Below are positions 7,749 to 28,457 of a DNA stretch of 34,354 bases, piece after piece. The stretch comes from Coxiella endosymbiont of Ornithodoros amblus (lineage in GTDB: Bacteria; Pseudomonadota; Gammaproteobacteria; Coxiellales; Coxiellaceae). A program made the position numbers and the translations under genes. The stretch spans positions 1-34,354 of the forward strand of contig NZ_VFIV01000009.1 in the NCBI RefSeq assembly GCF_019425495.1, read 5' to 3'. The notes under the pieces were generated by a model. That model did not search any database. It was not told the origin of the DNA and saw only the letters and a list, made by a program, of their open reading frames with translations. How positions within the stretch are numbered: the stretch's first letter is position 1; the number at the start of each line of letters is the position of its first letter.

Positions 7749-7770
7749 GATTCTCAAACACTGCATCATC

Positions 7771-7811
7771 AAAAATTATCGGCCGGTTCCAATTATGGCG
7801 GATAATTTTTT
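7771..7811 (+). terminator. Rho-independent terminator of the glyA-nrdR-nusB operon
   Basis: AAAAATTATC at 7771-7780 pairs with GATAATTTTT at 7801-7810, extended by imperfect GGCC/GGCG pairing, with a loop of about 14 nt. It ends in a T-run. It sits just after the mini-gene and before a minus-strand pseudogene, so it may work for both strands. Confidence 0.6.
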
Positions 7812-7854
7812 AACGGAGAAAATCGATCTTAGCCTGAGTCGTCACACCAAGAAA

Positions 7855-8460
7855 TTAGTCTTCTTCTGCTAAACGCGCGACTTCTAGCTTTTCAAGATCG
7901 GGGTTTAATGATTTTAAGTAGCGATCGTACCTTCTGTAATGATTTGCCTCAAGCGGGCTTTTGGTTCTCCTTCCTTGTAAGCGTACAACCACAAAGTCTC
8001 GATCCTTGGGTTTGTGCGTTCGGGTTCTACAATAATTGTAGTTCCGTTTGGAAATAAAGGTTCCGTCGCACATCCCTGATGGCAACACATACATAACTTC
8101 GTCCGAACTTTGATAATGAGGTAAAGCTTCGGGCCAACTCAACTAGTGGCATCCTTCCAGGAGACTAAAGGCACACGGTTCCATGCGCGATAACTCCCTG
8201 TTACTTCAGAGGACTGATCGCTAGAAATGGGTTCTTCACCAATCAGCTGGCTAATATTCACCATAAAATAGCGAGCGATAGGTTTTATCGTTGCTAACTT
8301 AGGGTTAGTATTTTGTCCCGTTGATAATCGGTGAATGATGAGTTATGCGATCCCCGTTCGTCAGGCTAACTCACTCGCGTTGATTTGGAGCGAGGTCATT
8401 AGCGTTTTAAGGTTTGAACTAGGTGAAGTTATAAAATTTGTCCCTATTATTCCTGTCCAT
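7855..8460 (-). pseudogene. Phage-type repressor pseudogene (XRE helix-turn-helix plus S24 domain)
   Basis: Read on the minus strand, an open stretch with two nonsense codons gives an XRE-type helix-turn-helix: LQINASELA-stop-RTGIA-stop-LIIHRLSTGQNT, then NPKLATIKPIARYFMVNISQ and LIGEEPISS. TGA stands where Arg/Gln (CGA/CAA) is expected and TAA where Gln is expected. It continues into VPLVSWKDATS, the start of a CI/LexA-like S24 domain. After a frameshift near 8143 the other frame carries KDRDFVVVRL and YLKSLNPDLEKLE, which also match the S24 fold. It was probably a 200-residue CI-like regulator. The canonical catalytic Ser (DSM motif) is not readable in either frame. Its relation to any phage is unknown. 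Confidence 0.7.
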
Positions 8461-8587
8461 TCACTTGGGGACTGTCTATTATTTAAAATAATAAACAATT
8501 AAATTATTTCTATTCTCATATCTACTGTCAACTATTTCTTACAATTAATTCTGGCTTAAGCTATTGACATGCATTAGAATTTAAGAT

Positions 8588-8617
8588 TTTTTAGCCCGTA
8601 TTTCTTTGTGGTATAAC
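8588..8617 (+). promoter_or_regulatory. Candidate thiL promoter (possibly leaderless)
   Basis: TATAAC at 8612-8617 lies six bases before the thiL ATG (8624). A weak -35 (TTTAGC at 8590-8595, 16-bp spacer) precedes it. There is no Shine-Dalgarno sequence. The same arrangement, TATACT plus a short pyrimidine run then ATG, is seen at map. The -35 is poor, so this is tentative. Confidence 0.35.
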
Positions 8618-8623
8618 TCTCTC

Positions 8624-9586
8624 ATGCCTTTAACAGAATTTACGATTATTAAAAATTATTTTCACCGACCGAAAAAGCAAGCGAAGAATGTAGTGGTTGG
8701 AATCGGTGACGATGCTGCGGTGATTGAAATACCTAAGGAACAGCAGGTTGTCATTTCTGTGGATACCCTAGTGGAAGGAGTGCATTTTCCAATAAATACA
8801 CCGCCGCGTGATTTAGGATATAAAGCTTTAGCTGTTAGTTTGAGCGATATCGCTTCCATGGGCGCTACTCCCCATACGGCTTTACTCGCTTTAACCATTC
8901 AAAAAACGAATGAGATTTGGCTGAAAGCGTTTGCAGAAGGTTTTTTTTTGCTGGCGGATCGTTATCAAGTTTCGCTCGTCGGGGGTGATGTGACAGAAGG
9001 CCCGCTTTGCATTTCAATTACGGCTACGGGTTTAATTCCAAAGAATGAAATGATTTGCCGTAACAGCGCGACAGTCGGAGATTTGATTTACTTAACGGGA
9101 ACGGTAGGGGACGCGGGTTTAGCATTGGCGTTATTAAAACAACATAAAAAAATAGATCCTTTTTTGTTGGCGCAATTAAACTGTCCCACTCCTCGTATTG
9201 AAGCGGGTGTGGCGTTGCGGGGAATTGCTAGTGCGGCAATCGATATTTCCGATAGCGTTGTGGCGGACCTTGAAAAAATCGCCCGAGCGAGCCAAGTGGG
9301 TGCGAAAATTTACGTCGAACGCTTGCCGTTATCGGACAGCTTTAAACGATACTGCCCTCTAAAAAAAGTGTGGGAATACGCGCTGGCCAGTGGAGATAAT
9401 TATGAACTTTGTTTTACCGTTCCAAAAGAAAGAAGCAAGCCATTAGAAGAAGTTTTTCATTCCTTGGGTTGCGAGTGTCGCTATATTGGAGAAATTATCC
9501 AAGGCAAGGGTGTGACGGTGATCGATCCACAAAACCGGCCCATAAACATAGCGAAAAAAGGTTATGAGCATTTTTCAAATGCGTAA
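8624..9586 (+). CDS. thiL: Thiamine-monophosphate kinase
   Basis: A 320-aa ATP-dependent kinase making thiamine diphosphate, the cofactor of SucA encoded 9 kb away. Family signatures: VVVGIGDDAAVI (about 25-36), ISVDTLVEGVHF, GYKALAVSLSDIASMGATPH, LVGGDVTEG and SDSVVADLEKIARAS, with SGDNYELCF near the end. The usual ISDGL motif reads ISDSV here. The ATG at 8624 gives the family N-terminus MPLTEFTIIKNYF; the frame is open six codons further upstream (TTG at 8606) without a ribosome site. It is flanked by pseudogenes on both sides and has no operon partner. Confidence 0.94.
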   Translation: MPLTEFTIIKNYFHRPKKQAKNVVVGIGDDAAVIEIPKEQQVVISVDTLVEGVHFPINTPPRDLGYKALAVSLSDIASMGATPHTALLALTIQKTNEIWLKAFAEGFFLLADRYQVSLVGGDVTEGPLCISITATGLIPKNEMICRNSATVGDLIYLTGTVGDAGLALALLKQHKKIDPFLLAQLNCPTPRIEAGVALRGIASAAIDISDSVVADLEKIARASQVGAKIYVERLPLSDSFKRYCPLKKVWEYALASGDNYELCFTVPKERSKPLEEVFHSLGCECRYIGEIIQGKGVTVIDPQNRPINIAKKGYEHFSNA

Positions 9587-9685
9587 TCCTCAATTTTAAC
9601 GAGACCCTATATAACTGAGTTATCATGAATAATGAATTATGATGCGGAAAGAATGGATTTTTAAAAGTAGTTTAAGGTGATGAAG

Positions 9686-10341
9686 ATGAAAAGGAGTTTG
9701 AGATCCCTCGCATCGAGAATTTTTATTTTTCCCCTCTTATTGGCATTAACGCCTTTGCAGGTGGTCCAGAATTCCTTATTTTAACCTGTGGATAACATCA
9801 CTTGGTATTTTAGGCTATTTATGGGGCGCATTTCAAATATGAGTCGAGTTATGGCATCGGCTCACGGTTGAATGTTCAAAATTATACATACTATACCAAG
9901 AAATTCGGTGATGGTGGGGGTAGTCAAATAGGCGTTCGCTATCACCTTAAACGTTCTTATGTGGGATTAGAAATGAGTGCGCAAGAGAGTAGTCGTCAGG
10001 GAAGCCATTAAATCATTTATATTTTTAGGCCAATGGCTCTCTTTGTTGTTACAAAGGCAATTTCGTATTAATTCTAATGTCGACCTTGCTAGTATTTTAG
10101 GGACAGACATAACTCCGCGCAGGCATATGTATGGCAAATTGGGCGTTTCATATTCCAAATTAAAGCACAAAGTTACTCAAAGGGTGTGTTCGGTATTGAC
10201 TTACTTCAAACGGTTTTCCAACAGAAGTTGAGTAAAAACCTCTGGTGTTATCTTACAGGATTAGGAATTGCAGAAGACCTTGAGTGAGGCGTGAGTCTTT
10301 TTGCTCAATACGATTATTATGATTATGTGAAAATAACTTAA
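9686..10341 (+). pseudogene. Decayed outer-membrane beta-barrel protein gene, paralogue 1
   Basis: An ATG at 9686 begins a signal-peptide-like stretch (MKRSLRSLASRIFIFPLLLA) broken by a stop at about 9781. Beyond it, spread over frames, are typical barrel strands: VRYHLKRSYVGLEMSAQES, RINSNVDLASILGTDITPR, KLGVSYSKLKHK and a last GVSLFAQYDYYDYVKIT. The same pattern (a G.RY-like strand, then NSN.DL, GVSY-like, and EYDYYDY-type strands) recurs in the next two pseudogenes. The fold resembles opacity-type/OmpA-like eight-stranded porins. Several frameshifts and stops make it non-functional. Confidence 0.65.
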
Positions 10342-10481
10342 AAACATTGAGAAACATCTATTCTTATTTGTTGATGTTTACACTCAAAAAGTACTAGTGG
10401 GTACTTATACTATCGCTTGGTTCTCAATTTTGAGTTTGCAGTGTAGTTCCGTAAGTTCGATGACAAAGGGAGATAAGGTTC

Positions 10482-11248
10482 ATGAATATTAAATAGCGCT
10501 TAAAATATCTGGCCTCATGTCTCTTATTCCGCGCTTTCTTCTGGGTAAATAGCAGCCCATTAGCGGGGGCGGGTTCAGAATACCACCGTCTGGCACCATG
10601 GGTGATTTATATTGGCAGTTTCGGCGGTGTCTATGTGGCTAATTTTGAATATGAAGGGAGGTATTTAGGAGATGGGCCTCCAACTTTTATCGTTCCGATC
10701 TCGCTAGTAATGTTGATCAAAATGGACATACCGCGGATGGGTATATCGGTCTTCGTTATTATTTTTCAAATCCTTGGTTTTTTGGTTTAGAGCTTGCTGC
10801 AATGGGAAATTCAGAAAATTCTGCAGCCGCCGCGAGCCTGCTTTCCCCCTCAATTGAAGATTTGATTTTTAAGTTGATTAATCAATTTAGAATTAAAAGT
10901 AATCTCGATTTAACTGCTCAGCTAGGAGTCAACATTACCTTTTGAACCCGCGTTTATATAAAAGGGGGCTTACGCCAAAATTAGACACATATTGATGGTT
11001 TTCAACCCGGCTGCTTTAACTCCGATCATTAGCCTTCAACAGACGACTCACAAAAATGGATGGGGCTATCTTTTGGGTTTTGAGTTGGGATATGATTTCT
11101 GTCCTTGGTTCGGCATTTTTACTGAATATAATTATTAAAGTAATATTTTAGTTTGAGTAATGGAGGCGATACTTATCGTCAAAATGTCCGTGTTCATGCT
11201 TATCCGGCCCTCCTAGGGTTAACCTCAATTTTTCAATCTAGGTTGTGA
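10482..11248 (+). pseudogene. Decayed outer-membrane beta-barrel protein gene, paralogue 2
   Basis: The ATG at 10482 is followed by an in-frame TAG at codon 5, then a signal-like stretch RLKYLASCLLFRAFFWVNSS and PLAGAGSEYHRL. Then come IYIGSFGGVYVANFEYEG and, in another frame, DGYIGLRYYFSNPWFFGLEL, INQFRIKSNLDLTAQLGVNI, RVYIKGGL, FGIFTEYNYY and a C-terminal VRVHAYPALLGLTSIFQSRL. The stretch FRIKSNLDLTAQLG lines up with FRINSNVDLASILG in paralogue 1, showing common origin. Multiple frameshifts and stops are visible. Confidence 0.65.
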
Positions 11249-23773: not shown

Positions 23774-23833
23774 CTCATTGAGGTCTAAACTAAGACTGCG
23801 AGTGTTGAGCCCCTATGTAGAGTCGCTGAAGTT

Positions 23834-24225
23834 TACTTTGTTTTCCTTCGATACACCGTGGCGAGTTTGTCCTCATTTGTAATTGACGTCGGTGTTTTTG
23901 TGTTAATTTATTGGTTAAGTAAAGAAAAATCTACTTCTTTAATTAATAATTGGCTGCTTGGTTTCTGGTGATTTTAATTTTTTTTAATAAATATTTAGTT
24001 TACCGTTCGCTGGATAAAGTTTTATCTAAGCGAGAAGCTTTCCTTTATGAAATTCTAGCCATCGGTATCTTCTTCGTTTCCTATTGTTCTATATCAGCAT
24101 TGACGGTTGATTTCCATTTTCACGTTATTGAATCTAAAATTCTGGTCGATATCGTTTTATTTTGTATGAATTTTTAATTCAACGTTTTTTATTTCGAACA
24201 GGAATGATAAAAACAGCGAATTGTG
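23834..24225 (+). pseudogene. GtrA-like membrane protein pseudogene
   Basis: Three frames together give FLRYTVASLSSFVIDVGVFV, LAAWFLVILIFFNKYLVYRS, EILAIGIFFVSYCSISALTV and AT-rich C-terminal pieces ESKILVDIVLFCMNF then FLIQRFLFRTG. This four-helix layout, with ...NF(L).QR..FR at the end, is that of GtrA-like proteins, which often help transfer lipid-linked sugars. Frameshifts lie near 23950 and 24172. It overlaps the minus-strand comB relic at its 3' end. Confidence 0.55.
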
Positions 24226-24690
24226 AACAAAATTCTATATTGGCTTCGTAGCCCAGTCGTAATAACTGTTTCCCAGTGGGGGATTGCCACAAAAGCGTTT
24301 TTATTTCCAGAGATAGGCGCTATTGTCCCACTTATTCGAAAAGGAGCCAGTTTAGAAAAAGCCCGTTAGCCAATCATCCGTTCAGCATATGGTGACGACG
24401 GCTAGGACAATGTAATTGTCTTTTTTATAGCGTTCAGCCAGTTGTTTGGCTGCGGCACTTACCGCGGAACAATTACGCAAACAGCCTATTAAAATAGGAA
24501 TGGCGCTACCGCCTGCATTTAATATACAAGGGCCGTTACTTGAAAAAGAACGAGTATTTTCCTTTTTTGTGCCTGCGATTAATTTTGTCGAGGAATTACG
24601 CTAATCGACATTTCGCAGTTTTTTCTTCTTTCTCGCGAGCGGTAATAAAATCTATCCGTTTTTCTATCGTTAAAACCGGTTTAACCTTGC
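24179..24690 (-). pseudogene. comB-like pseudogene (2-phosphosulfolactate phosphatase)
   Basis: Minus-strand pieces follow ComB: VLTIEKRIDFITAREKEEK, GNSSTKLIAGTKKGKYSFFS, SNGPCILNAGGSAIPILIGC, LRNCSAVSAAAKQLAERYKK, DNYIVLAVVTI, then a stop where the E.W region should be, and a C-terminal LLRLGYEANIEFCSQFAVFI ending at TGA 24181-24179. These match the family signatures GNSP.E, TTNGTRAL, L.NASAVA and SG.EL...GY..DIE. The first 60-70 residues of ComB are missing, apparently by a deletion joining it to comA. The enzyme removes phosphate from phosphosulfolactate. Confidence 0.65.
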
Positions 24691-25182
24691 ACCCACAGCC
24701 AGTTGACGTGAAACTTGAAGGATGCTCCGTTGCGTGATGTTGTATTCCGCATCTATCGCAGGATCTTTCCGCCCTACCTCAGAAAAAACGGTAATCCCAA
24801 TTGTTTTTCTTTTTTAACAACATTAACTTTGATTTCGATATCAATTGCATCGACTCCATCAGAAATCAATTCCGTTAAAACCTAATTGCTGACATGCCTC
24901 GAAGTGTTCAGCTATTTTATTTTGAAAATAGGCTATTTCAAAAAACGCTCCGCCCGTACAAACAATTATTCCTGCCTTTTTAAGTAAACTTAATTTCTGC
25001 AATAATTTTTTCCCGGAATAAATCCGGCTCGTGCCAAATCCTAGTTTGAGGATATCGATAAAACTCGATCCCCTATCCAAGAGCGCTTCTGTTTTTTGTA
25101 GACTCAAGCCTTTATCAATTACAGAAGTTAACCCTTCTTGTTGCGGTTTAGGAGCCCGTTGCAGCAAAAGAGATAAAATCAA
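24691..25182 (-). pseudogene. comA-like pseudogene (phosphosulfolactate synthase)
   Basis: The open stretch 25182-24859 reads APKPQQEGLTSVIDKGLSLQ, then FIDILKLGFGTSRIYSGKKL, KKAGIIVCTGGAFFEIAYFQ and LGFNGIDF before a stop. After a frameshift come GITVFSEVGRKDPAIDAEYN, ITQRSILQVSRQLAVGAR. This is an almost complete ComA/PSL-synthase pattern (GLT.VIDKGL, DILKLGFGTS, VC.GG.LFE.A, E.GRKDP). The enzyme adds sulfite to phosphoenolpyruvate. The 3' end has been lost into the adjoining comB relic, and the 5' end lies beside a 10-bp tandem duplication (CAAAAGCTAA twice, near 25179-25198). Confidence 0.75.
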
Positions 25183-25241
25183 AAGCTAACAAAAGCTAAT
25201 CGTTTCTACATAAGGGATTCCCTACCAAATTCTTTATTACC

Positions 25242-25920
25242 TTAAGCAGCTGCTTTTTTAATTGAATGAATCCCATATTCTCCACCTTGGAGTGAGGTAC
25301 CGCGCCAACGTTCATCACTTTCGCTTTGATCATTACTACGTTCAGGAGTAGAGCACAATCTGCAACCCAAACTACGATAGTCTTTGCTATACAAGGTATG
25401 AGCCGGAATATTATATTGATCCGCAAGATACTGCCAAATATCGGCTTCTGAAAAAGCTAAAATAGGATTTATCTTCAAAAGATTAGAAACTTTCACGCTG
25501 AGAAAAATTTTTTCGTTCAGCACCTTCGTCGTCTCTAACCCCGAAATCCAATAATCGAGTTCGGCTAAAACGCTTTGCATAGCAGGAAACTTTTAGCCCA
25601 TTGTAACAGTTACCTGGAGAATCGCTTAAATCCTTCTGCATAAAATCGTATTGATGCTAATTGAGATTCCAAGTTTCAACAATAAATCGGATGTATTTTT
25701 AGGTTTCATCGAATTCAGTATCTGAAACCAGAGAATACACTTTTATATTTGGATCGATTTTACGGAAAAGGTGAAGTAAGAGCATAGAATCCTTAGCAAA
25801 TGAAATGAGTATAAGAGTCCAACTCGCTTATTCACAAATTCGTTTAAAGTATCGCGAATAAGCGCTTTTACTTGCTTAATTTTCTTTAAGAAAGTTTTTT
25901 CAGATATTTTTAGACCTCAG
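25242..25920 (-). pseudogene. cysH-like pseudogene (APS/PAPS reductase)
   Basis: Minus-strand pieces: ISFAKDSMLLLHLFRKIDPN (PP-loop region), KVYSLVSDTEFDET, IVETWNLN and HQYDFMQKDLSDSPGNCYNG, then an open stretch from 25580: LAELDYWISGLETTK, KINPILAFSEADIWQYLADQ, YRSLGCRLCSTPERS, RWRGTSLQGGEYGIH. The family's catalytic ECGIH is EYGIH here. The GCRLC pair, and a C-Y where APS reductases have C-C, suggest the iron-sulfur APS type. Breaks lie around 25580, 25640-25690 and 25830. The enzyme would reduce activated sulfate to sulfite, the substrate of ComA next door. Confidence 0.7.
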
Positions 25921-26214
25921 CTTAACTTTTAAAATTCAAAATGTTAGCGTTACCTTGAAATATGGCAGATTAAAGCAGAATTTTTCTATAACCCATCAAA
26001 AAATAATAATATATTTATTTCCATTTTTCTGCGTTTGTCGGAAAAGTTATCATCAGGAGGATGGCAACAATGGAATTTAATGTTTTAATTTAAGTGTTTG
26101 ATATTTTTTATAATTATTCGATATCCTATCAGCCGGCCTTCAGACTCATTACCTATCTTTTGATAGGTTTAAGGCTTATTTTCATCTCCGAGTTTTAGAG
26201 GAGGGAATTTCTTT
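25921..26214. promoter_or_regulatory. Divergent spacer between cysH-like and decarboxylase-like relics, with hairpin
   Basis: It contains a TATAAT at 26109-26114 without a good -35. A hairpin, ACCTATC (26151-26157) TTTT GATAGGT (26162-26168), is enclosed by an outer GCCTT/AAGGC pair. A perfect AGGAGG ribosome site at 26055-26060 precedes an ATG whose frame ends after seven codons; this may be a leader peptide or a dead gene start. The layout suggests the two decayed transcription units shared this control region. Confidence 0.35.
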
Positions 26215-27120
26215 ATGAGTTATTATTTGATGTTTAAGACTTATCTGAATTACGCGGTTCGTACTCACCATAAACAGTTTTTTAATCAATTATTTTCTGC
26301 GACAACCACGGCCGCTCCAATGGGTGAAATGCTGACGAACTATCACTAACACGACGAGACCGCTACTTTTTAAGCGGTGCCAACGGCGGTAGTCAAGCTA
26401 ATATGGTTGCCGCGCTTTACGCACGCAATCAGTCGCTTCCGGCTGTAAAGGTAGAGGGATGCTGGAATGAACCAAAACCGTTAGTGATGTTTGTTTCCGA
26501 TCACGCCCATTATTCCGTCTTTAGTGTAGCCGATACTATTCAGAATTAGAGAGAAAAACGTGGTGCGTGTAGAGCAATAAACGCCTCAGGCCAAATGTTA
26601 CCTCATGCGTTAGAAATGCAAATTAATCGCACGCTTTCCGAAGAAAAACAGCCTTTTTAATTATAGGGACGACGGGTGCATGGCTAACGGGTGCATTCGA
26701 TCCTTTGGTCGAAATTTCTGAGATTGCTCATAAAAATGCTTTGGATTCATGTAGATGTTGTTTCTGGTGGTTCTTTATTGTTAAGTTCACGTTATCGCTC
26801 GATGTTTACCAGCATTGAAAAAGTCAATCGGTCTGTTGGGATGCGTATAAATTATTAGGTGTTCCCTTATTTTGTTCGGCTCTTCTAGGGAACGAAAAAG
26901 AAATCTTATTTCAAGCATGTAGTAATAACACTGCTGATTATCTTTTTCATAAGCCGCAAGCAGGCCACGACTTTGGAACGATATCGGTGCAATGTGCAAA
27001 ACAGGCAGATGTTTTAAAATTAAGGTCATTTTTCGCTTAGCGATTACTAGCCACGAATTGTCGGAAGCTGACATTGACCAATGTATTAAAAATATATTAC
27101 AAATAACAGGACGCTATTAA
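26215..27120 (+). pseudogene. PLP-dependent decarboxylase pseudogene (glutamate / cysteine-sulfinate decarboxylase type)
   Basis: The ATG at 26215 has a GAGGAGGG ribosome site. Pieces: GGSQANMVAALYARN, PLVMFVSDHAHYSVFSVADT, INASGQMLPHALEMQINRTL, LIIGTTGAWLTGAFDPLVEI, WIHVDVVSGGSLLLSSRYRS, SVCWDAYKLLGVPLFCSALL (PLP Lys region; the usual His before Lys is Tyr), YLFHKPQAGHDFGTISVQC, and C-terminal RLAITSHELSEADIDQCI ending at 27120. This is the group II decarboxylase pattern shared by glutamate, cysteine-sulfinate and cysteate enzymes; the substrate cannot be told from the relic. Stops and frameshifts are numerous, and the N-terminal third is largely lost. Its stop codon overlaps the stop of map on the other strand. 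Confidence 0.7.
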
Positions 27121-27893
27121 ACGCTAATTTTTTCACCCTTTCGTAAAGTAAACACTTCGCAACCGGTTTCTGTTACGGCGAGAGTATGCTCCCATTGGGC
27201 AGAGAGGCGACGATCTTTTGTAACTACTGTCCAATCATCATTAAGTAATTTCACATAGCGTTTTCCGGCGTTGATCATAGGTTCGATGGTAAAAGTCATC
27301 CCGGGCCGTAAAACAGCACCGGTGCTGGGACGACCATAGTGAAGCACTTGCAATTCAGGTTCGTGAAAAACGCTTCCAATGCCATGCCCGCAATATTCTC
27401 GAACAACAGAATAATGATTTTTCTCCGCATGCGCTTGAATGGCCGCGCCAATGTCACCAAGCGGTGTGCCCGGCTTAACCATGCTGATGCCGATGTAGAG
27501 ACATTCCTGTGTAATTCTAACTAAACGCTCCGCATGAGAAGGAATTTTGCCAATAGCAAACATTTTGCTGGTATCTCCGTGATAACCGTCTTTAATGACG
27601 GTGATGTCAATATTGATGATGTCGCCATCTTTTAATTTTTTGTTGCTGGGAATGCCGTGACAAACGACGTGATTAACCGAAGTGCAAATAGATTTGGGAA
27701 AGCCGCGATAGTTAAGCGGTGCTGGAATAGCCTTCTGTATTTGTGTGATGTAATCGTGACAAATCGCGTTGAGTTCATTGGTGGTAATTCCCGCTTTCAC
27801 GTAAGGGTCAATCATTTCGAGCACTTCCGCCGCCAACTGGCCAGCAACGCGCATTTTTTTCAGCTCTTTGGGTGTTTTAATCGATATTGGCAT
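27117..27893 (-). CDS. map: Methionine aminopeptidase, type I
   Basis: A 258-aa metalloprotease that removes the initiator Met from nascent proteins. It has the metal ligands of the family: the two Asp in NIDITVIKDGYHGDTSKMF, His in CGHGIG, Glu in FTIEPM and Glu in QWEHTLAV. MPISIKTPKELKKMRVAGQ is the family N-terminus, so I start at the ATG 27893-27891; the frame is open to a TTG at 27929 with no homology. There is no ribosome site before this ATG, and a promoter places the transcript start at or next to the A of ATG. Its stop overlaps that of the plus-strand decarboxylase relic. Confidence 0.96.
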   Translation of the reverse strand: MPISIKTPKELKKMRVAGQLAAEVLEMIDPYVKAGITTNELNAICHDYITQIQKAIPAPLNYRGFPKSICTSVNHVVCHGIPSNKKLKDGDIINIDITVIKDGYHGDTSKMFAIGKIPSHAERLVRITQECLYIGISMVKPGTPLGDIGAAIQAHAEKNHYSVVREYCGHGIGSVFHEPELQVLHYGRPSTGAVLRPGMTFTIEPMINAGKRYVKLLNDDWTVVTKDRRLSAQWEHTLAVTETGCEVFTLRKGEKISV

Positions 27894-28351: not shown

Positions 28352-28457
28352 TATAAAAGCGCGGAAAAATACACACACTTCTCGGTACATGATCCCGGGT
28401 GCCCTGTTTCAACGGGTCGTGTCATGGGATAAGTGGAGGTTTAACCCGGAGAAAAAA
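28352..28457 (+). promoter_or_regulatory. rpsB promoter -10 and structured leader
   Basis: TATAAA at 28352-28357 is followed by a GC-rich discriminator (AGCGCGG), a feature of stringently controlled translation-gene promoters; the -35 is weak. The roughly 95-nt leader can fold: ATCCC (28392-28396) with GGGAT (28426-28430), and inside it CCC (28402-28404) with GGG (28414-28416). In gammaproteobacteria ribosomal protein S2 is known to repress rpsB-tsf through a leader structure; whether this is the same element needs structural comparison. Confidence 0.4.

What the first reader, a model, noticed from the sequence alone, without database searches (positions are those of the whole stretch)
24179..27120. 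Ghost of a sulfonate-biosynthesis cluster (cysH-comA-comB relics plus a divergent decarboxylase relic)
Seen: minus-strand relics in the order APS/PAPS reductase, phosphosulfolactate synthase, phosphosulfolactate phosphatase, with a divergent group II PLP decarboxylase relic. Known: ComA joins sulfite to phosphoenolpyruvate and ComB dephosphorylates the product, giving sulfolactate; from memory, Bacillus subtilis has a sporulation-linked yitABCD operon with the same combination of activities, and spores hold sulfolactate. Inference: an ancestor of this bacterium made sulfolactate or a related sulfonate, possibly also taurine or a similar amine by the decarboxylase, and the lineage has lost it. 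This is unexpected in a gammaproteobacterial pathogen, and intriguing because Coxiella forms a resistant, spore-like small cell variant.
Basis: partly seen in the sequence, partly recalled or inferred. Interest (0 to 1): 0.82.

Follow-up and report, generated by a model that had tools for sequence, protein, structure and literature searches.

The report
Dead sulfolactate gene cluster in tick symbiont
A bacterium living inside a soft tick carries the broken remains of genes that probably once turned sulfate into the small sulfur acid sulfolactate, a compound best known from Bacillus spores, which tells us of a lost ability in its ancestor.

Summary
On the minus strand lie relics of cysH, comA and comB; on the plus strand, divergent, a relic of a group II PLP decarboxylase. 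Chance is excluded: ComA piece E 3.6e-28, CysH piece E 3.2e-12, and for each of nine intact queries 0 of 300 shuffles reach the real score. ComB is the weakest. The genome matches the Coxiella-like endosymbiont of the tick Ornithodoros amblus by size and contig count, not C. burnetii. Among 10 genus genomes held, the cluster was found in this one and the O. maritimus symbiont, broken in both. The same two of 10 hold relics of ATP sulfurylase, with APS kinase fused. The enzyme set for sulfate to sulfolactate therefore probably once existed here, as in B. subtilis. ComA is nearest to Legionella homologues. The decarboxylase belongs to the cysteine-sulfinate/glutamate decarboxylase group; 2 of 6 intact relatives are followed by cysteine dioxygenase, so taurine-type chemistry is plausible but unproven. 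No support for a link to the spore-like cell form was found. Two other ComA relics occur in the genus, one beside an XcbC-like relic.

The parts
24185..24624 (-). comB relic (2-phosphosulfolactate phosphatase), about residues 67-226 of intact homologues; the 5' part was not found
   Evidence: tblastn with intact ComB of Legionella sp. (L049, 48% over 50 aa, E 7e-5), of G126 (E 0.008) and of L. rowbothamii (E 0.12; a second piece at 24292-24185, E 0.29); PF04029 E 0.025, below cut-off; 0 of 300 shuffles reach the real best score of each query
24685..25161 (-). comA relic (phosphosulfolactate synthase), profile positions 2-160 of 243; longest open piece 24862-25185; the 3' part was not found
   Evidence: PF02679 E 1.7e-32 over the stretch with 4 stops; open piece E 3.6e-28, TIGR03849 E 7.3e-29 (below that model's full-length cut-off); solved ComA 1qwg E 1.2e-13
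25245..25827 (-). cysH relic (APS/PAPS reductase), in open pieces 25245-25592 and 25702-25827
   Evidence: PF01507 E 3.2e-12 and 0.0015; NCBIfam PRK02090 6.6e-19 and TIGR02055 APS_reductase 1.1e-14, both below full-length cut-offs
26176..27037 (+). group II PLP decarboxylase relic, CSAD/GAD group, divergent from cysH; the C-terminal part was not found
   Evidence: PF00282 pieces 4e-5, 4.3e-5 and 1.6e-7; best solved relatives of the last piece GAD2 8.5e-10, GAD1, CSAD 3.4e-7, GADL1; full-length relatives match between 26176 and 27022, best E 3.6e-13
23778..24201 (+). context only: GtrA-family membrane protein relic between sucD and the cluster; open over 147 aa in the sister genome and also found next to sucD in G001, G003 and G007
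   Evidence: tblastn; PF04138 E 1.5e-8 for the sister copy

Best explanation
This is a pseudogene cluster. It no longer makes anything. In an ancestor, SAT/APS kinase (its relics lie elsewhere in the genome) activated sulfate to APS/PAPS, and CysH reduced this to sulfite. ComA added the sulfite to phosphoenolpyruvate, and ComB removed the phosphate to give sulfolactate. The divergent decarboxylase most likely acted on an acidic sulfur amino acid (cysteine sulfinate or cysteate, giving hypotaurine or taurine) in the same sulfonate economy. Sulfolactate would have been an end product, solute or exported sulfonate. When the lineage settled in Ornithodoros ticks these genes lost their use and decayed. 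Shown: the relics, their families, order, strand, decay, and the matching SAT/APS-kinase relics. Inferred: that they once worked together, the product, the decarboxylase substrate and the reason for the loss. The reactions are established knowledge of these families.
For: Family matches. Same cluster, also broken, in the O. maritimus symbiont. ATP-sulfurylase relics in the same 2 of 10 genus genomes, with APS kinase. ComB next to ComA in four of the nearest intact ComA relatives (L038, L039, L049, L051; in L039 ComB runs off the contig). B. subtilis yitCD plus yitBA-yisZ are inferred to make phosphosulfolactate, and sulfolactate is 5% of spore dry weight (PMC517825, passages). Neutral decay: 27 gaps, 20 not multiples of 3, in 2.4 kb, and 7% divergence, close to the dS of 0.06-0.13 in 7 neighbouring genes.
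Against: SAT/APS kinase lies in what looks like a polysaccharide cluster beside CysQ-like and sulfotransferase pieces, so it may have served sulfation rather than CysH. The ComC family was found in 0 of 10 genus genomes. The decarboxylase pieces match none of about 89 other ComA loci held, so its tie to the pathway rests on position and group. PF04029 does not reach its cut-off in this genome; the ComB call rests on tblastn and on the sister genome.
Confidence: 0.8

Rival explanations
1. ComA and ComB made the head group of a sulfonolipid (capnine-like) rather than free sulfolactate. In Legionella, whose ComA is nearest, ComA is fused to a fatty acyl-AMP ligase and acyl carrier domain next to an alpha-oxoamine synthase and ComB.
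For: L. rowbothamii L051: aminotransferase-class oxoamine synthase, then AMP-ligase, carrier and ComA in one protein, then ComB and DUF6356. L049 shows the same ORF order, and its ligase and synthase regions match the same CRt relics. Window ComA is nearest to these two by tree path. CRt keeps synthase-ligase-carrier relics; synthase pieces up to 58% identical, end pieces 28-39%.
Against: The window ComA is preceded by cysH, with no ligase found between. The best synthase match in this genome is 34% identical over its length, which I take for a BioF/Kbl-type enzyme. The CRt relic has no ComA part.
Confidence: 0.12
2. The decarboxylase is unrelated to sulfonates: it made beta-alanine or GABA from aspartate or glutamate (or acted on another amino acid), and sits beside cysH-comA-comB by chance.
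For: Best solved match of one piece is glutamate decarboxylase 2 (8.5e-10) ahead of CSAD (3.4e-7); for another piece glutamate decarboxylase 1 (0.0021) and DOPA decarboxylase (0.0026) rank ahead of CSAD (0.025). The relative L145 scores on the PanP model (151 bits, cut-off 606). The decarboxylase pieces match no other ComA locus held.
Against: 2 of 6 intact relatives are followed by cysteine dioxygenase, and one of these two, the only one searched, is nearest to CSAD (2.9e-71). The relic shares the fate of the cluster in both genomes.
Confidence: 0.35
3. The cluster is a laterally acquired block that entered only the Ornithodoros symbiont lineage and may never have worked long there (compatible with the best explanation of what it encoded).
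For: Found in 2 of 10 genus genomes. In G001 and G007 the sucD-map interval holds other relics. G+C is 38.3% against 43-44% in neighbouring genes.
Against: ComA groups with two Legionella and one uncultured gammaproteobacterial ComA rather than distant donors (92% SH-aLRT, quick tree, window row only 40% filled). SAT/APS-kinase relics lie at a separate locus, which a single block would not explain. Low G+C also fits decay.
Confidence: 0.3

Closest known systems
Bacillus subtilis yitCD and yitBA-yisZ (phosphosulfolactate/sulfolactate genes; PMC517825, passages seen; which gene is which enzyme is recalled)
   Same: Same enzyme set: ComA, ComB and CysH here, plus ATP sulfurylase and APS kinase relics elsewhere in the genome.
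   Different: Here cysH-comA-comB form one strand-wise run with a divergent CSAD/GAD-like decarboxylase; SAT and APS kinase are fused and lie elsewhere; all are broken; sporulation control was not looked for.
Legionella oxoamine synthase / ligase-carrier-ComA / ComB / DUF6356 cluster (L049, L051)
   Same: Nearest ComA relatives by tree path, ComB next to ComA.
   Different: Legionella ComA is fused to a ligase and carrier, with no CysH or decarboxylase match beside it. No paper on this cluster was seen among the 12 of 23 listed.
Coenzyme M biosynthesis (ComABC; bacterial XcbB-E, pathway recalled)
   Same: First step, ComA/XcbB.
   Different: ComC family in 0 of 10 genus genomes; no XcbC match in the window. 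An XcbC-like relic occurs beside a different ComA relic in G001 and G007.

Membership tests
Phosphosulfolactate synthase ComA (PF02679) | Profile match above curated cut-off | tested here: met
   99.1 bits against 25.2 for one open piece
Phosphosulfolactate synthase ComA (PF02679) | Intact reading frame | tested here: not met
   4 stops inside the match; no match after position 160
2-phosphosulfolactate phosphatase ComB (PF04029) | Profile match above curated cut-off in the window | tested here: not met
   14.1 bits against 26.4, no match at E 0.001 in the genome search; the sister genome piece reaches 28.6; intact ComB matches the window piece at E 7e-5
APS/PAPS reductase CysH (PF01507) | Profile match above curated cut-off | tested here: met
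   47.3 bits against 22.5
Sulfate-to-sulfolactate pathway (B. subtilis type) | Sat, APS kinase, CysH, ComA and ComB in one genome | tested here: met
   As relics only: window and C77 SAT fitting the bifunctional SAT/APS-kinase model; the APS-kinase domain itself was profiled only in the sister genome (PF01583 3.7e-33)
Sulfate-to-sulfolactate pathway (B. subtilis type) | Sulfolactate made by the cell | not testable with these tools
   Extinct pathway; needs metabolite data on a relative
Cysteine sulfinate decarboxylase (CSAD) | Group II PLP decarboxylase of the CSAD/GAD group | tested here: met
   For the best piece the solved matches up to E 1 are GAD1, GAD2, CSAD and GADL1; for a weaker piece DOPA decarboxylase also ranks high and titin appears at E 0.2
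Cysteine sulfinate decarboxylase (CSAD) | Preference for cysteine sulfinate or cysteate | not testable with these tools
   GAD scores higher than CSAD on the pieces
Coenzyme M biosynthesis | ComC (PF02615) or XcbC with ComA | tested here: not met
   PF02615 in 0 of 10 genus genomes; no XcbC match in the window or L018
Link with Coxiella small cell variant | Gene set expressed or intact in SCV-forming Coxiella | tested here: inconclusive
   No C. burnetii genome among those searched; the main text of the SCV paper has no 'sulfolactate'

The most novel reading that the evidence does not exclude
Sulfonate chemistry was once a general trait of the Coxiella lineage. At least three separate sulfonate-type routes left relics in tick symbionts: a sulfate-to-sulfolactate route with a taurine-type decarboxylase (this window), a ComA-XcbC route like the start of bacterial coenzyme M synthesis, and a Legionella-like oxoamine synthase/acyl-carrier route (without its ComA part). 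They decay on becoming a nutritional tick symbiont, while C. burnetii still expresses a ComA homologue (CBU_1954) and may still make a sulfonate.
Probability: 0.3. Interest if true: 0.72.

Novelty: new member of a known kind. Interest (0 to 1): 0.5.

Why it matters
It adds a lost metabolic ability to the reconstructed ancestor of soft-tick Coxiella symbionts, close kin of the Q fever agent. It also points to a little-noticed sulfonate biology in Legionellales: the Legionella ligase-carrier-ComA fusion cluster and the annotated comA of C. burnetii seen in its proteome. Whether any of these bacteria make sulfolactate, taurine or sulfonolipids then becomes a concrete question.

Tried and rejected
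The spore-like-cell idea was checked in the main text of the SCV transcriptome paper and found no support. A coenzyme M reading of the window was rejected because no XcbC or ComC match was found. The sulfonolipid reading was kept only as a rival, because no close Legionella-type oxoamine synthase was found here (best 34%). A search for a cysteine dioxygenase relic in the window and seven other fetched Coxiella stretches gave one hit, E 0.57, on another contig. Neighbourhood clustering around 80 ComA loci gave no recurrent partner that explains the cluster. C. burnetii could not be examined directly: no genome of its size is among the 10 held for the genus, and it is not among the 80 of 127 related loci listed, which may leave out near kin of the window. 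dN/dS of the open pieces (0.49 comA, 0.30 and 0.64 decarboxylase, 0.87 cysH, one not computable) was not used as evidence, because the pieces were chosen for being open and the cysH comparison probably loses register.
Full report
What the window is. The genome has 1,561,173 bases in 101 contigs, the figures given for CLEOA, the Coxiella-like endosymbiont of the soft tick Ornithodoros amblus (PMC8290121, passages and Table 1 seen). It is described as a sister taxon of C. burnetii, with 660 pseudogenes and 889 functional genes. The relics lie between sucD and map.

Are the relics real? Each open piece was scanned on its own. ComA: 24862-25185(-) hits PF02679 at E 3.6e-28. CysH: 25245-25592(-) hits PF01507 at 3.2e-12, with an upstream piece at 0.0015. 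The decarboxylase: three + strand pieces hit PF00282 at 4e-5, 4.3e-5 and 1.6e-7. ComB is weak by profile (0.025; no match at E 0.001 in the genome search), but an intact Legionella ComB matches 24546-24400(-) at 48% identity, E 7e-5. Nine intact relatives used as queries against 23774-27116 all beat every one of 300 dinucleotide shuffles. The decarboxylase piece keeps a lysine opposite that of the SVTWNPHK stretch of glutamate decarboxylase (alignment; its role in PLP binding is recalled).

Decay. The O. maritimus symbiont (G009; named through L048) has the same cluster in the same place, 90% identical over 24689-27300 by blastn, and also broken. In a MAFFT alignment of 24689-27116, identity is 92.8% over 2392 aligned bases, with 27 gaps, 20 of them not multiples of three. 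Seven flanking genes have dS 0.06-0.13, so the relic diverges about as fast as silent sites. The two relics have lost different parts. CLEOA lacks the end of comA and start of comB. The sister has a comB-start piece on the opposite strand to its comA, with a weak comA-end match beside it (E 0.008) and a 30-base inverted match to the window. The simplest reading is that comA and comB were neighbours and that the sister suffered a small inversion.

Where else in the genus. Of 10 genus genomes, ComA-family matches occur in 4. They fall into three kinds: the window type (CLEOA and CLEOmar); a longer type on contig C96 of CLEOA and C3 of CLEOmar, 64% identical over 108 aa to an intact gammaproteobacterial protein; and a third in CRt (G001, by length) and G007, beside genes that look by eye like a polysaccharide exporter. 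Every match over the ComA cut-off in the genus is broken or partial. In the order, 5 of 36 genomes match, with one intact (G028). In the class sample, 14 of 369 match (13 over the cut-off). At the sucD-map position the cluster was found in CLEOA and CLEOmar only, of 10; for G003 the contig ends before map, but G003 has no ComA match anywhere.

The upstream step. PF01747 (ATP sulfurylase) matches 2 of 10 genus genomes, CLEOA and CLEOmar, both broken. The CLEOA piece fits the bifunctional SAT/APS-kinase model (E 1.7e-42), and a CLEOmar piece carries APS kinase (PF01583 3.7e-33). Nearby are weak inositol-phosphatase-family pieces, which I read as CysQ-like (PF00459 about 4e-5, below cut-off), and a sulfotransferase piece (PF00685 1.2e-5, over cut-off in CLEOmar; 2.8e-4 in CLEOA, below it), among ORFs that look by eye like polysaccharide genes. 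So sulfate activation existed in the same lineage, but it may have served sulfation too. No CysD was found: the other 8 PF01507 matches in the genus outside the cluster are below cut-off, 7 of them in frames of 443-536 aa.

What it did. ComA, ComB and CysH together with SAT and APS kinase are, by recall, the enzymes of B. subtilis yitCD and yitBA-yisZ, which are inferred to make phosphosulfolactate; sulfolactate is 5% of spore dry weight there (PMC517825, passages seen). The window ComA groups with two Legionella and one uncultured gammaproteobacterial ComA (92% SH-aLRT in a quick tree of 48 rows; 38 of 80 named loci were used, 2 of those dropped as duplicates; the window row fills 40% of columns). 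In the four nearest intact relatives (L038, L039, L049, L051) ComB follows ComA, running off the contig in L039, and a DUF6356 gene is adjacent (profiled on one). Among about 89 other ComA loci held, tblastn found ComB in 11, a relative of the CysH piece in 2, and of the decarboxylase pieces in none (the CysH and decarboxylase queries are decayed pieces, so these are lower bounds).

The decarboxylase. Solved-structure matches of the best piece are glutamate decarboxylases 1 and 2, cysteine sulfinic acid decarboxylase and GADL1; a weaker piece also matches DOPA decarboxylase. Of six intact relatives outside the genus in the class sample (8 of 369 genomes match), two (G081, G357) are followed directly by a cysteine dioxygenase gene (PF05995 3e-19 and 3.5e-9). 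A third neighbour profiled is an ATP-grasp protein, and the neighbours of the other three were not profiled. The G357 enzyme is nearest to CSAD. None of the six reaches the cut-off of an NCBIfam model. Cysteine sulfinate or cysteate is therefore a reasonable but unproven substrate. The ComC family (PF02615) is in 0 of 10 genus genomes, so a continuous route from sulfolactate to cysteate is not supported.

The pathogen and spore-like-cell link is not supported. C. burnetii has an annotated comA (CBU_1954, 33.4 kDa, listed as a seroreactive protein; PMC3386016, passages seen). Its size fits the longer C96 type (intact relatives of 294 and 316 aa) rather than the window type (256 and 258 aa), an inference from length alone. 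Paper searches for Coxiella with phosphosulfolactate gave 0 papers and with sulfolactate gave this 1. The main text of a comparison that includes CLEOmar has no 'sulf', 'cysteine' or 'taurine' (PMC12152204), and that of the CLEOA paper has 'sulf' twice, in passages not shown to me. Only open-access papers in that library were covered.

Verdict. A real, decayed cysH-comA-comB cluster with a divergent CSAD/GAD-type decarboxylase, most likely the ghost of a sulfolactate pathway in a soft-tick Coxiella lineage. The pathway kind is known; its presence and loss here, and the hints of wider sulfonate chemistry in Legionellales, are the new part.

Noticed in passing
L020 9684-11580 (G001, CRt by length) and L022 9737-11654 (G007): A different ComA relic directly followed by a relic of XcbC, an enzyme of bacterial coenzyme M synthesis (NCBIfam NF052535 E 1.1e-51, below the full-length cut-off; 34% over 411 aa to G213 XcbC). 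No XcbD or XcbE match in the fetched 19 kb. In G001 the 18.5 kb stretch occurs twice, identical.
   Followed up: partly
L051 4589-9468 and L049 4577-9451 (Legionella): Oxoamine synthase, then one protein joining fatty acyl-AMP ligase, acyl carrier and ComA, then ComB and DUF6356: a possible sulfonolipid-type cluster (domains profiled for L051 only).
   Followed up: partly
L170 8043-11313 (G001, CRt by length): Relics of the Legionella-type oxoamine synthase (pieces up to 58% identical), acyl-AMP ligase and acyl carrier, without a ComA match.
   Followed up: partly
L164 about 7888-9765 (CLEOA C77) and L165 about 7751-10829 (CLEOmar C28): Pieces of a CysQ-like phosphatase, fused SAT/APS kinase and a sulfotransferase inside what looks like a polysaccharide cluster: the lineage may once have made a sulfated surface glycan.
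   Followed up: partly
L017 about 8210-8926 (CLEOA C96) and L019 (CLEOmar C3): Second ComA-family relic of a longer type, resembling plant HSA32 by recall only; 64% identical over 108 aa to an intact G075 protein. Possibly the counterpart of C. burnetii CBU_1954, by size only.
   Followed up: partly
L128 1887-2141 (G001) and L135 6790-8870 (G007): In these relatives the sucD-map interval holds different relics, 81-83% identical between the two; the G001 piece has an SHGCIR motif like L,D-transpeptidases (recalled, not profiled). C. burnetii has such a gene, CBU_1394 (EnhA.5), near its suc genes by locus number.
   Followed up: no
window 28354-28445 (+): t44 RNA upstream of rpsB, 62 bits, the only Rfam match at gathering score in the window.
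   Followed up: no
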